From Chloroflexota bacterium (lineage in GTDB: Bacteria > Chloroflexota > Dehalococcoidia > GIF9 > UBA5629): a DNA stretch of 64,000 nucleotides. Positions within the stretch are counted from its first letter, which is position 1; each line of letters opens with the position of its first letter. The translations under genes and the position numbers were made by a program. The stretch covers positions 1 to 64,000 of the forward strand of contig VGOP01000004.1 in the NCBI GenBank assembly GCA_016875875.1, written 5' to 3'. The notes beneath the pieces were generated by a model. That model was not told the DNA's origin. It saw only the letters and a list, made by a program, of their open reading frames with translations, and did no database searches. Shown here in pieces: positions 45,831-49,851 of the stretch.

Positions 45831-46673
45831 ATGAATAAGAATAAACATTTGACACAAACAGGCTACGAAGACCAAACAATGAAGAGCGATATCAGTCGGC
45901 GCTCTGCAAAGTTCAACGCGCTTAAAGCCGAGGCTAAGCGGCGAAACACAAGTCTAATCACAACTATCGTTACCTGCGCCGGTGTTCTGGCATTTGTAGC
46001 CGCTACCATACTGGCAGCCATATATGTCCCTCAGGTAGCCATATATGTGCCTTTTATTGCCCTGGCACTGGCGTTGGCCCTACAGAAATACACTGCCAGC
46101 TTTTTCTCCTTCTTTGTCATCACCTTCTCCAAAATCTACGACATTGGGGATAGAATTCGCATCGGCAACACAAAAGGCGATGTCAGGCATATAGGGCTGC
46201 TTCACACTACACTCGAAGAGGTCGGAGAGGACGAGAAGCTGGGCGGTGAACTCACCGGCAGGCTGCTATACGTGCCCAACCTCATCATACTTGACCAGCC
46301 AGTACTGAACTACTCCAAGGACTACTCGACAGGCCTTGAGGCTATCTCCTCTGACTACATGTTCGACGAGGTACGCATCCCCATAACCACCGACAGCAAC
46401 GTGGAGAAGGCGAGCCAGCTTCTGGAGAGCATACTTAAGAGCCAGGACGAGGTCTACGTGAAGCAGGCCGGCCAGGTCTTCCAGGACGGTTACCCCAGGT
46501 TCCTCGACGAAGCCATGAGCGGCCCCCGCGTGCTCGTCTTCGTCGAACCGCAGCACATTTGGATTAAAGGCAAGTTCGTCGCCCCGCTGGAGAGCCGCAA
46601 CGACCTGCGCAGCAGCATACTCCTCCAATTCATCAAGGAAGCCAAAACCAGCTCCGATATCAAGCTGGCATAG
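45831..46673 (+). CDS. MscS-like mechanosensitive ion channel
   Basis: A 280-residue protein with two or three membrane helices (about 43-95). The pore/beta junction has the MscS pattern: IALALALALQKYTASFFSFF, then FSKIYDIGDRIRIGNTKGDVRHIGLLHTTL and a C-terminal alpha/beta vestibule. It would open under membrane tension during osmotic downshift. ATG 45879 (M17) is an alternative start. Its last 127 coding bases and following 55 bases are repeated at 47377-47558. Confidence 0.88.
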   Translation: MNKNKHLTQTGYEDQTMKSDISRRSAKFNALKAEAKRRNTSLITTIVTCAGVLAFVAATILAAIYVPQVAIYVPFIALALALALQKYTASFFSFFVITFSKIYDIGDRIRIGNTKGDVRHIGLLHTTLEEVGEDEKLGGELTGRLLYVPNLIILDQPVLNYSKDYSTGLEAISSDYMFDEVRIPITTDSNVEKASQLLESILKSQDEVYVKQAGQVFQDGYPRFLDEAMSGPRVLVFVEPQHIWIKGKFVAPLESRNDLRSSILLQFIKEAKTSSDIKLA

Positions 46674-46728
46674 GCCACCACACCATTCACTATTCACTCA
46701 CCGTCTTTGCCTGGCGTGTCTTTGATTG
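46547..46728 (+). repeat. 182-bp direct repeat, copy 1
   Basis: The 3' end of the MscS gene plus downstream sequence. It matches 47377-47558 with an offset of exactly 830 bases and about 19 mismatches, with no gaps needed. Confidence 0.9.
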
Positions 46729-46857: not shown

Positions 46858-47373
46858 ATGGGCATAAAGTATACGGCAACAGGGAGGTTATCAATCAAAA
46901 TACTGGCTATGCTGGGCATGTGTTTGGTGCTGTTGACGAGCGTTTCAGCTCCTGTATTCGCCGGCGTTGAGCCCACTCCGTGGCAGCCGCAGGTGAATCA
47001 GCTCAACGCAGTGACTAACAACCTGGCAGAGATTAACAGGCACGTTGATAAAGCCATAATCCGGGCAGGCGTTGAGCCCACACCATGGAAAGCGCAGGTG
47101 AACCAGCTCGAGGCCATGGCGCAACAGCTTAGCGTGCTGAACGGTCGGGTGAGTGCAGTTCTAAAGGTTCTAGGTGTCCCACCTGATGACCAGAGAGTAC
47201 TGGATGCCCTGCAAGAAGTCAGCGATGGAGCGCAGGCAATCGTTACTGACATCCGTCTTGGTACTCCGCCGGATGACAATAGGGTACGGGAAGCCCTGCA
47301 AGAAGTCAGCGACGGAGCGCAGGCAATAGTTGACTTGGTAGACACTTTCCTCGATGGCACACCCATAAAATAG
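46858..47373 (+). CDS. Secreted protein with two pairs of internal repeats
   Basis: A 171-residue protein of no recognised family. Residues 1-36 form a signal peptide (basic start, ILAMLGMCLVLLTSVSAPVFA, cleavage after VFA). The mature part holds two repeat pairs: GVEPTPWxxQVNQL at about 37 and 71, and PPDDxRVxxALQEVSDGAQ at about 108 and 138, the second pair nearly identical in DNA too. The rest is helical and Gln/Val-rich. GAGAGGAGG supports the ATG. A consensus promoter implies strong expression. It is probably an exported or surface helical-repeat protein. Confidence 0.75.
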   Translation: MGIKYTATGRLSIKILAMLGMCLVLLTSVSAPVFAGVEPTPWQPQVNQLNAVTNNLAEINRHVDKAIIRAGVEPTPWKAQVNQLEAMAQQLSVLNGRVSAVLKVLGVPPDDQRVLDALQEVSDGAQAIVTDIRLGTPPDDNRVREALQEVSDGAQAIVDLVDTFLDGTPIK

Positions 47374-47376
47374 CTG

Positions 47377-47558
47377 ACCGCAGCACATCTGGATTAAAGG
47401 CAAGTTCGTCGCCCCGCTGGAGAGCCGCAACGACTTGCGCAGCAGCATACTGCTGCAATTCATCAAAGAAGCCAAAGCCAGCTCCGATATCAAGCTGGCA
47501 TAGGCTACTACGTCATTCGCTATTTACCGACCGTCTTTGCTCGGTGTGCCTTTGACTC
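47377..47558 (+). pseudogene. Remnant of a second MscS-like gene (C-terminal 41 codons)
   Basis: About 90% identical to 46547-46728. Translated from 47378 it gives PQHIWIKGKFVAP...SSDIKLA and a TAG stop, matching the end of the intact channel. Of six differences in the coding part five are silent, which means the paralogue was under protein-level selection before its front part was lost. It now lies directly behind the secreted repeat gene, out of frame with it. Confidence 0.85.
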
Positions 47559-47797
47559 CATGATACTACGCCGCACCGGGAATTGAGCAGAACGTTTTGC
47601 GTTGTGTGGCTCAGGCCTTTTCTCTCTATGTGCGTCAGATCTGACAAATTCCTTAAAGCTTTTAAACATTAAACGAACCACCTAAGTCTTGACTTGACAG
47701 CATCGTTTGACACGGTCTATATTAGTTATGTAATGTAATGGTCAAACCGCTGGTGCGGGGGGGCAAAATCCAAGCCAGCATAGACTAGGTACGAAAA
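47559..47797. other. Intergenic stretch before the HD-like gene
   Basis: No gene is seen here. It holds the promoter at 47694-47723 and an uninterrupted G-rich patch (GGTGCGGGGGGGC, around 47753-47765). Confidence 0.5.
47694..47723 (+). promoter_or_regulatory. Promoter for the HD-like gene
   Basis: TTGACA (47694-47699), 18-base spacer, TATATT (47718-47723). A second TTGACA overlaps at 47707-47712. The start codon follows about 78 bases downstream. Confidence 0.6.
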
Positions 47798-47800
47798 GTG

Positions 47801-48907
47801 ATGGAACAACTATCAACAAATAGCCATATAGTCGTAGACCCTATCTATGGCAATATCGAAATCGACGACTTGCTACGTAAGCTTCTGACATACACCGACG
47901 TTCGGAAGGAGCGGGAGAGGCTGGAAGGAATTAGATGTCTTGGCTTGATTTCACTGGTATTCCCATCGGCGACACATATGAAATGGGAACACCACACAGG
48001 TATGTACCATGTTGTACAGGAACTCAGACTCATTTCTGAAGATATGAAGAAGTTCAGAATATATTGCATTCTTGGTGGGATAGGCCATCTCCCATATACA
48101 TATGCAGCAGAAGAAGGAGTGCTACTGGCTACTAAGCTGTCAAAGGAATTTCACGACACACTGCGTAGTGCGTTGGAACCAGTTTGGGAGATGTGTATAA
48201 AACACAAACCGCAATTGGAATCGACTAGCAGACTCGACCAACTATTGGAAAACTATGAATACGAGTCATTACATGCTTGGTTTTGTGGCTTGAAGATAAA
48301 GCTTATGCCAAAGGAAGTGGACCTCGGCGACAGGGAATGGTTGATCTGTCATAGGCTCGATGACAGGAGCGAGTTCAACCGACTATATAGGATAGTATCG
48401 CGCTACGATTATGTGCAGAGAGACCTTCATTACACAGGACTCGCCAGATTCTCTATTCCCGTAAGTGTTGCTTTTCAGGCGATGCGCAGTGGCATTACAG
48501 CGGTTGCTGCGCTAGAAGAATCAGTGGAGGTGGCGCTTCTAAGCCAGTTGCGCCATTATCTAGTAGACACTCTATATCTTGATGCTAGGTCAAGTGTCAT
48601 CGAAAGTCTTGTAGCACGAAAGGTAGCAAGATTGCTTATGGAAGGCATGCTAGACGTGAACAAGTTGTTGGAATTTAAAGATGAAGACCTTAAAAGCTTG
48701 CTCGATAAAAATCTTGGAAAAGATTTCTTGCCTTCCACCAGAGACAGAATACCTAGAGTCATACTTAAGAGCGATGTTAGGTTTTCTTATGCCACTGCTA
48801 TGGATGAGAAAATTCCAAACGTCCTAGAGCAAGAGAAAAAGGTAGTTGGCTTAGGAAGCAGACTCTGCAGAAAGTTGTGTCCTATCCCGATGACGACGGT
48901 TATATAG
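47801..48907 (+). CDS. Degenerate HD-domain (SAMHD1/dGTPase-like) protein, N-terminal part
   Basis: A 368-residue product read from ATG 47801. RLEGIRCLGLISLVFPSATHMKWEHHTGMYH (39-70) matches the start of SAMHD1-like HD phosphohydrolases, with H64 at the first metal ligand. The position of the defining His-Asp pair, normally in LLHDxGHGPFSH, reads ILGGIGHLPYT (90-100), so the pair is replaced by Gly-Gly while H96 is kept. Metal catalysis is therefore unlikely. The frame ends in SRLCRKLCPIPMTTVI, which looks out of register, and the next frame opens in the overlap. The frames may be one gene broken by a frameshift. Confidence 0.65.
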   Translation: MEQLSTNSHIVVDPIYGNIEIDDLLRKLLTYTDVRKERERLEGIRCLGLISLVFPSATHMKWEHHTGMYHVVQELRLISEDMKKFRIYCILGGIGHLPYTYAAEEGVLLATKLSKEFHDTLRSALEPVWEMCIKHKPQLESTSRLDQLLENYEYESLHAWFCGLKIKLMPKEVDLGDREWLICHRLDDRSEFNRLYRIVSRYDYVQRDLHYTGLARFSIPVSVAFQAMRSGITAVAALEESVEVALLSQLRHYLVDTLYLDARSSVIESLVARKVARLLMEGMLDVNKLLEFKDEDLKSLLDKNLGKDFLPSTRDRIPRVILKSDVRFSYATAMDEKIPNVLEQEKKVVGLGSRLCRKLCPIPMTTVI

Positions 48908-49851
48908 TTCTAGTCAGGCCCATGACGAAACCAGGGGACTTTGCCTCCACTCATGTTATCACAATAGCAACGGTCGATACCCCAAAATCATTGGGACTAC
49001 TGGTGCGTCCTATCCGAAACTTAGAGATCCTGCAGAGTAAACTTGCAAGAGGGGGGAGTATGCCTACATCTGCAAGAGATCTCTCAAAGTCGCCTTACGG
49101 AATAGCAATTCTACGCTATATTTTCGATACGTCGAAGGTTGAAATTAACACGAATAAGTTAGAAAAGCATTTGGTAGCAGCAATAAAACAGGCTTCTGAT
49201 CCAAATCTCCAAAACTTGTTTGAAACGCTATATAAATTAGAAAAAGTAGATACAGAGCCTGAAAGAGCAAGACCGAGAGACACCGTTGCTTGGAGGCTTA
49301 TATTTGGCAATAAGAATGAGCCACAACGTCTTAAAGAGGCAATAAATGCGCGCCGCGTTGTAAGACTAATTTTTGACTTGACAACAAAAAGTTCCAGAAT
49401 GGCCCGAACTCTTTGTATTCCTCTTAGAGCAATTCTTATGGAGGCGGAAAAAAGCAAAACGCTGAAGCAAGATGAAGTCACAGAAGTTCTTGCGTATACC
49501 AACGAGCTCATGGCCGATGATAAACAACAAGCGGCTAGGTGGGTCTTGCCTCTTGTAACAATCGCAATGCGACCAGACGATTTAAAAGAAGTGGATGTAA
49601 TAACAATTACGCTTGCGTCTGATGGCGTTTGTATAAGACTACTTGAATGCACCAAAAGCGATGCCTCAAACAAAGCTCTAAATGATTACAGCAAACTGAT
49701 TGATTTGAAAAACTACCTAAATTCGAAACGGTTTGCCGACCTCACTGTTGATACAAAAGTTATCGGGGCCTCTAAGGTGGCCAAAGATTTTCTATCCATT
49801 GATTTACTCTATAAGTCGCTTCCAAGCGACAAAGCTCCGGAAGAAGAGTGA
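48877..49851 (+). CDS. Continuation of the HD-like protein, or overlapping second gene
   Basis: A 324-residue frame whose only early start is GTG 48877, 30 bases inside the previous gene, with no ribosome site. The frame is open back to 48808. Its beginning (SYPDDDGYIVLVRPMTK) reads as a mid-domain strand, not a natural N terminus. Spliced to the upstream frame it would give one protein of about 680 residues. No family is recognised for this half, which is helical (LLRSKL..., EVTEVLAYTNELMADDKQQAARW). The region is AT-richer than its neighbours by eye. Confidence 0.55.
   Translation: MSYPDDDGYIVLVRPMTKPGDFASTHVITIATVDTPKSLGLLVRPIRNLEILQSKLARGGSMPTSARDLSKSPYGIAILRYIFDTSKVEINTNKLEKHLVAAIKQASDPNLQNLFETLYKLEKVDTEPERARPRDTVAWRLIFGNKNEPQRLKEAINARRVVRLIFDLTTKSSRMARTLCIPLRAILMEAEKSKTLKQDEVTEVLAYTNELMADDKQQAARWVLPLVTIAMRPDDLKEVDVITITLASDGVCIRLLECTKSDASNKALNDYSKLIDLKNYLNSKRFADLTVDTKVIGASKVAKDFLSIDLLYKSLPSDKAPEEE

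What the first reader, a model, noticed from the sequence alone, without database searches (positions are those of the whole stretch)
47801..49851. Degenerate HD phosphohydrolase reading frame split in two
The N-terminal part has the SAMHD1/dGTPase-like lead-in (SATHMKWEHHTG), but the His-Asp pair reads Gly-Gly (ILGGIGHLPYT). The following frame is shifted, has no ribosome site, and its start reads as the middle of a strand. Flanks look AT-rich. Options are a real frameshift (pseudogene), a programmed shift, or a coupled two-gene toxin/defence-like set with a dead nucleotidase acting as binder.
Basis: partly seen in the sequence, partly recalled or inferred. Interest (0 to 1): 0.58.

Follow-up and report, generated by a model that had tools for sequence, protein, structure and literature searches.

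The report
Broken dead-HD, nuclease-like defence gene
This is one gene broken in two by a reading-frame shift, whose rare intact relatives join an enzyme-dead nucleotide-binding domain to a DNA-cutting-enzyme-like domain and sometimes sit next to bacterial DNA restriction genes, hinting at a little-known accessory of anti-virus defence.

Summary
ORF1 (47801-48907) has a SAMHD1/EF1143-like HD domain whose His-Asp pair reads Gly-Gly. ORF2 (open from 48808 to 49851) continues it in the -1 frame. They are two halves of one gene: three of three relatives found are unsplit (676, 635 and 695 aa). The dead HD is a family trait, not decay: the pair reads RG, GG, HG, AQ in four members against HD in 10 of 10 control HD proteins. 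The aspartate equivalent to SAMHD1 D311 is also lost in three of four. The C-terminus looks like a PD-(D/E)XK nuclease with Thr/Ser at the lysine position; the fold evidence is moderate (low-confidence model, Z at most 7). One relative ends a type I hsdRMS operon in a prophage, one follows a type IIG-like methylase, and one lies in another mobile element. The window copy stands alone, AT-rich, between two convergent housekeeping genes. A same-genus genome carries different cargo at that place. Most likely reading: a horizontally acquired restriction-associated sensor/nuclease-like protein, broken by a frameshift in this genome (true mutation or assembly error). Programmed frameshifting and a two-gene toxin set are disfavoured.

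The parts
47694..47723 (+). promoter-like TTGACA-18-TATATT upstream of ORF1
   Evidence: 11 of 12 consensus matches; 4 sites found in the region against 4.4 expected at the looser threshold, so weak
47801..48907 (+). ORF1, N-terminal half of the split gene (368 aa; GTG 47798 is an alternative start): SAMHD1/EF1143-like HD domain plus helical part; the last ~20-35 residues are out of the relatives' frame
47990..47992 (+). codon of H64, the retained first metal-site histidine (WEHH)
48074..48079 (+). codons of G92-G93 at the His-Asp columns
48398..48400 (+). codon of S200 at the column of the catalytic Asp (SAMHD1 D311 equivalent)
   Evidence: the D311 numbering is recalled
48808..48907 (+). zone in which both frames are open and the shift must lie (matches to the relative leave a gap between 48796 and 48868)
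48808..49851 (+). ORF2 reading frame, C-terminal half (GTG start codon at 48877)
49399..49848 (+). C-terminal PD-(D/E)XK-like domain: D263 codon 49594-49596, E280 codon 49645-49647, T282 codon 49651-49653 at the usual lysine position, followed by a lysine-rich helix

Best explanation
One horizontally acquired gene, split by a single frameshift. Intact, it encodes a roughly 685-aa two-domain protein: an N-terminal SAMHD1-type HD fold that has lost its metal site but kept the first His, the Gly-His and the Arg/Asp of the (Y/L)D(Y/F/C)xxRD motif, and a C-terminal PD-(D/E)XK-like domain. I infer that the dead HD domain no longer hydrolyses dNTPs but binds a nucleotide or nucleic acid and thereby controls the nuclease-like domain, as an accessory of restriction-modification or of a mobile element's own defence. 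In the window the gene is alone and broken, so this copy is probably inactive, or on its way out, unless the shift is an assembly error. Shown: the split; unsplit relatives; family-wide loss of the HD pair; linkage of relatives to restriction genes or mobile elements; absence of the gene at the syntenic place in a same-genus genome. Inferred: the ligand, control of the C-terminal domain, DNA cleavage, the role in defence.
For: Unsplit relatives: P0003/L058 676 aa, P0004 635 aa and P0005 695 aa. HD columns RG/GG/HG/AQ against HD in 10 of 10 controls, and the D311-equivalent S/S/D/S against D in 10 of 10. A profile of the four members (ORF1 standing for the window gene) finds the HD protein 2hek at E 2.3e-19 and SAMHD1 chains at E 4e-8 to 2e-5, all through the N-terminal ~110 positions. 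In the VIA second look at the AF2 model of L058, 6 of 50 listed rows are SAMHD1 or E. faecalis HD dNTPase over model residues 34-330 (Z 6.1-6.8) and the other 44 lie in residues 428-676 (Z 5.1-7.0), mostly named nucleases. A C-terminal profile of window plus L058 ranks P0005 and P0004 first and second, above 1000 shuffles. Setting: hsdR-hsdM-hsdS-P0005 in a prophage; Eco57I/N6 methylase directly before P0003; P0004 beside an RDF-like and a primase-like gene. Low GC; different cargo in G002.
Against: Only three relatives were found, so the restriction link rests on two loci. The window has no methylase nearby; the matches to the relative's methylase in this genome lie on other contigs. Both AF2 models have low confidence (mean pLDDT 43.7 and 47.2), Foldseek gave no hit at E up to 0.001, and every VIA Z is under 8, a level the tool warns can be a common arrangement. 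The lysine of (D/E)XK is T/T/S/T and the Glu is Gly in P0005, so the nuclease-like domain may also be inactive. PADLOC, Pfam and NCBIfam gave no passing family for the window protein or for the relatives. Nothing here shows expression or activity.
Confidence: 0.55

Rival explanations
1. The gene is intact in the organism and the split is a single-base sequencing or assembly error.
For: Both halves are otherwise open with no further stops in 368 and 347 codons, and still similar to the relative throughout; the shift zone contains a short A-run; the genome is a 20-contig draft.
Against: No other gene in the window is evidently split in the ORF list (read by eye), though no reference was used to test that.
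Confidence: 0.3
2. Programmed -1 frameshift that makes a short (HD only) and a long (HD plus nuclease-like) product.
For: The shift has the right direction; in-frame AAA AAG codons lie at 48836-48841; the downstream half has not decayed.
Against: The heptamer is G AAA AAG, not XXXYYYZ, and no perfect one occurs in 48790-48910; RNA folds downstream are ordinary (z -0.18 and -1.18); three of three relatives need no shift.
Confidence: 0.08
3. Two cooperating genes (toxin/antitoxin-like or defence pair), ORF2 translated from GTG 48877 by coupling.
For: The ORFs overlap by about 30 nt from GTG 48877 to the ORF1 stop, as coupled genes can.
Against: Fused in three of three relatives; the GTG lies within a conserved stretch; no clear ribosome site.
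Confidence: 0.03
4. Double pseudoenzyme: neither domain is catalytic, and the protein is a DNA- or nucleotide-binding adaptor for the restriction methylase, for example to protect self DNA or an element's DNA.
For: The HD pair is lost in four of four; motif III reads ECT/ECT/EVS/GVT, without the usual Lys in four of four and without Glu in P0005.
Against: PMC1913061 (section 7 read) reports a PD-(D/E)XK family, DUF1626, in which motif III Lys is often Thr and Lys/Arg in the next helix may replace it; three of four members here have such lysines.
Confidence: 0.3

Closest known systems
SAMHD1 / E. faecalis EF1143-type HD dNTP triphosphohydrolases (EF1143 name recalled)
   Same: N-terminal fold and motif lead-in; H64, Gly-His and the RD of the last motif retained
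   Different: HD pair replaced (GG in the window) and the D311-equivalent replaced by Ser; extra C-terminal nuclease-like domain
PD-(D/E)XK superfamily, variant with motif III Thr (DUF1626, PF07788; PMC1913061 section 7)
   Same: predicted beta-beta-beta-alpha-beta order, E-x-D in 4 of 4, ExT/S in 3 of 4, Lys-rich following helix in 3 of 4
   Different: no Pfam match to that family; HD domain in place of its coiled coil; Glu missing in P0005
Can2/Card1 (sensor plus PD-(D/E)XK nuclease; function recalled)
   Same: could work like them: ligand-binding front half, nuclease-fold back half; they appear among the VIA rows (Z 5.8-6.9)
   Different: the sensor would be a dead HD domain, not CARF; no CRISPR link seen; ligand unknown
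Clover CloA, a dGTPase regulated by nucleotides (PMC12265719; passages seen)
   Same: HD dNTPase-fold defence protein that responds to nucleotide signals
   Different: CloA is catalytically active and partnered with an NTase; here the HD pair is gone
Type I (EcoAI-like) and type IIG restriction systems
   Same: two of three intact relatives lie directly beside such genes
   Different: an extra gene not part of the standard hsdRMS set; absent around the window gene

Membership tests
SAMHD1-type HD phosphohydrolase | sequence similarity to the HD fold | tested here: met
   phmmer of ORF1 to 2hek E 5.9e-9; family profile E 2.3e-19
SAMHD1-type HD phosphohydrolase | metal-binding His-Asp pair | tested here: not met
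   GG in the window; RG, HG, AQ in relatives; HD in 10 of 10 controls
SAMHD1-type HD phosphohydrolase | downstream catalytic Asp (D311 equivalent) | tested here: not met
   Ser in the window, P0003 and P0005; Asp only in P0004
SAMHD1-type HD phosphohydrolase | dNTP hydrolysis | not testable with these tools
   needs an assay
PD-(D/E)XK nuclease | core fold | tested here: inconclusive
   low-confidence model; 44 of 50 VIA rows in that region, Z 5.1-7.0; no Foldseek E up to 0.001
PD-(D/E)XK nuclease | motif II acidic residue | tested here: met
   E-x-D in 4 of 4
PD-(D/E)XK nuclease | motif III (D/E)XK with Lys in place | tested here: not met
   ECT, ECT, EVS, GVT; Thr variant with migrated Lys reported for DUF1626 (PMC1913061)
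Restriction-modification component | linked methylase gene | tested here: not met
   none beside the window gene; two of three relatives have one
Programmed -1 frameshift gene | XXXYYYZ slippery site in frame plus stimulator | tested here: not met
   0 perfect heptamers in 48790-48910; fold z -0.18 and -1.18
Programmed -1 frameshift gene | shift conserved in relatives | tested here: not met
   three of three relatives single-frame
Known anti-phage system (PADLOC) | match to a PADLOC model | tested here: not met
   0 families for all five proteins tested at E up to 1 or 10

The most novel reading that the evidence does not exclude
A rare family of two-domain proteins in which a metal-less SAMHD1 fold serves as a nucleotide or oligonucleotide sensor that gates a PD-(D/E)X(T/S) nuclease, added as an extra effector gene to type I and type IIG restriction loci and carried by prophages: restriction with a second, nucleotide-gated trigger.
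Probability: 0.27. Interest if true: 0.68.

Novelty: new variant of a known kind. Interest (0 to 1): 0.42.

Why it matters
Active HD dNTPases are known antiviral effectors in animals and bacteria. A family that kept the fold, lost the metal site and gained a nuclease-like partner domain beside restriction genes would suggest that the SAMHD1 fold can be recruited as a sensor, and that some restriction loci carry an extra effector that annotation libraries miss. The split copy itself is of little interest except as a relic or an assembly check.

Tried and rejected
Close relatives by DNA or protein: P0001 against genome contigs, none; A2 against genome contigs, 6 loci of which only L058 is a family member; viral contigs with A2, P0005, P0004, P0001 and A6, one hit (L064), an ordinary HD protein; plasmids and phages by tblastn with P0003, none, P0004 in phages and P0005 in plasmids, none, P0001 in plasmids 7 records, weak matches, none covering 80% of the query and not read further. 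Of the 22 class genomes with a match, four are family members; of the other 18 I read the HD motif in 11 loci, all intact, and left 7 unread.

Structure: Foldseek of both models gave nothing at E up to 0.001. A comparison of the C-terminal profile with the start of the relative's methylase, tried because that start looked nuclease-like, gave nothing. The C-terminal profile against PDB sequences gave only E of 0.07 or worse. Frame-overlapping ORF pairs are common in the window by stop-to-stop counting (17 pairs), so overlap alone is not evidence of a split; the fused relatives are.

A first script to give residue positions read gapped rows by mistake and printed wrong positions; one search replaces those positions. 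The GC figures do not depend on that and stand.

Literature: searches returned no paper whose title or abstract start describes a dead HD domain fused to a nuclease-like domain beside restriction genes (listings and abstract starts seen only); 106 was for nuclease motif variants. Passages were seen in PMC12265719, PMC1913061 (with section 7 read) and PMC10952713. Subscription papers are not held, so absence from print is not claimed.

Full report
What is there. ORF1 (47801-48907, 368 aa) and ORF2 (open from 48808 to 49851) lie in different frames with a 100-nt overlap. ORF1 is in the SAMHD1 neighbourhood: phmmer finds PDB chain 2hek at E 5.9e-9 and SAMHD1 chains near 1e-3. Pfam (E up to 1 and up to 10), PADLOC and NCBIfam (E up to 1) name no family for either half, apart from one NCBIfam chance hit far below its cut-off. 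The own genome (1.97 Mb, 20 contigs) has no second copy.

One gene, split. A genome of the same order encodes both halves in a single 676-aa frame (P0003). ORF1 matches it at 34% identity, E 8.5e-55, and ORF2 at 28-38%, E 4e-19 to 9e-19. BLASTP aligns ORF2 with residues 357-673. Two more distant members are also unsplit: P0004 (635 aa) and P0005 (695 aa). Three of three relatives therefore need no shift. I do not say which change would restore the window frame.

How rare it is. With P0003, 22 of 393 class genomes matched at E up to 1e-3; four are family members (G052, G000, G183, G186) and the rest, as far as read, are ordinary HD proteins. With the family profile, 2 of 84 genomes of the order have it. 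In 400 genomes of the phylum only G186 and G000 gave long matches; the other listed matches cover the N-terminal HD part or other short stretches. P0005 as query found 2 of 392 class genomes. P0004 found itself plus an ordinary HD protein in 151 genomes (the other genome's HD protein, L009, was read).

The dead HD is a family trait. In an alignment of the four members with ten ordinary HD proteins, the HD columns read R-G, G-G, H-G and A-Q in the family and H-D in 10 of 10 controls. The D311-equivalent reads S, S, D, S against D in 10 of 10. The first histidine, the Gly-His and the final Arg-Asp are kept in 14 of 14. SAMHD1 numbering is recalled. The Gly-Gly is thus not a product of decay after the frame break.

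The C-terminal domain. The AF2 model of the L058 protein with both window halves aligned is poor (mean pLDDT 43.7, pTM 0.34), but its end shows strand-strand-strand-helix-strand-helix. A model of the C-terminal domain alone is no better (47.2). Foldseek has no significant hit. The VIA second look on the full model lists 50 rows: 6 are SAMHD1 or E. faecalis HD proteins over residues 34-330, and 44 lie within residues 428-676, most of them named nucleases such as MspJI, FokI, McrBC, Can2/Card1, Holliday resolvases and arenavirus endonucleases (that these share the PD-(D/E)XK fold is recalled). All Z are 5.1-7.0, so this is support, not proof. Motifs: E-x-D in 4 of 4, then ECT, ECT, EVS, GVT where (D/E)XK is expected. 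PMC1913061 (section 7) describes threonine at that lysine position in DUF1626, with Lys/Arg in the next helix as a possible substitute; three of four members here have lysines there. Whether the domain cuts DNA cannot be told. That P0004 and P0005 share this domain rests on ranks 1 and 2 above 1000 shuffled decoys, E 5.6e-4 and 0.016 for P0005 and P0004, and on local hhalign E-values of 2.1e-3 (P0005) and 3.4e-4 (P0004) with probabilities of only 13 and 38%.

Surroundings. P0005 is the last gene of an EcoAI-type hsdRMS operon (HsdR E 9.8e-304), its start overlapping the hsdS stop, within a prophage with portal, protease and head genes. P0003 directly follows a 1196-aa methylase (Eco57I E 1.1e-19, N6_Mtase E 5.1e-19). 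P0004 lies in another mobile element with an RDF-like gene and a primase-like gene and no methylase noticed among the listed ORFs. The window gene has no such neighbour: it lies between an mscS-like gene and a convergent metallo-beta-lactamase-fold gene (mscS name recalled; MBL by Pfam). Its GC is 43.2% against 52.7% and 53.5% in those genes. Of the three other genus genomes, G002 keeps both neighbours but has a DUF7718 gene between them; G001 keeps the MBL gene with other genes beyond; G003 had no MBL match. Horizontal gain at a variable site is the simplest reading.

How it would work. Inference: the dead HD domain binds a nucleotide or nucleic acid and controls the nuclease-like domain; restriction linkage and mobile-element carriage point to DNA defence. 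Precedents seen: SAMHD1 allosteric sites can hold oligonucleotides (PMC7854603, abstract start), and Clover's CloA responds to nucleotide signals (PMC12265719, passages). The window copy, as sequenced, would give an HD-only product and lose the C-terminal domain.

Frame break: mutation, error or programme. Both halves are otherwise clean, so the break is recent, unreal or tolerated. A programmed shift is disfavoured: G AAA AAG is not a perfect slippery site, there is no unusual RNA fold, and relatives lack it. True mutation versus assembly error cannot be decided without reads.

Verdict. The dead HD plus nuclease-like architecture beside restriction genes is a new variant of known kinds; the split window copy is a broken or mis-assembled member.

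Noticed in passing
window 46600-46725 and 47430-47555: 126-nt direct repeat (87%) of the 3' end of the mscS-like gene on both sides of a small protein gene with internal repeats (46858-47373). The second copy is closer (96% over 127 nt) to the single mscS end of same-genus G002 than the first (92% over 78 nt), suggesting an insertion that brought its own mscS end.
   Followed up: partly
L072 1762-2939 (G002): The place between mscS and the convergent MBL gene holds a DUF7718 gene in G002 and the dead-HD gene in the window: a possible variable-cargo site.
   Followed up: partly
L063 3891-6374: An 827-aa Opitutae ORF with what looks like a Sir2-type front half (recalled motif) fused to an intact HD domain; defence-like architecture.
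   Followed up: no
L015 (G384), 646-aa ORF: An HD protein with an intact HD pair and an N-terminal helix-turn-helix-like region (read by eye).
   Followed up: no
L025 12182-12688: A 168-aa ORF shortly downstream of the methylase/dead-HD pair with a nuclease-looking EAKYR motif; no Pfam match.
   Followed up: partly
L027 2234-17239 (G186): A mobile element in a genome of the same class with RDF-like, DUF3854 primase-like, AAA and subtilisin-like protease genes around P0004; possibly an undescribed phage or plasmid-like element.
   Followed up: partly
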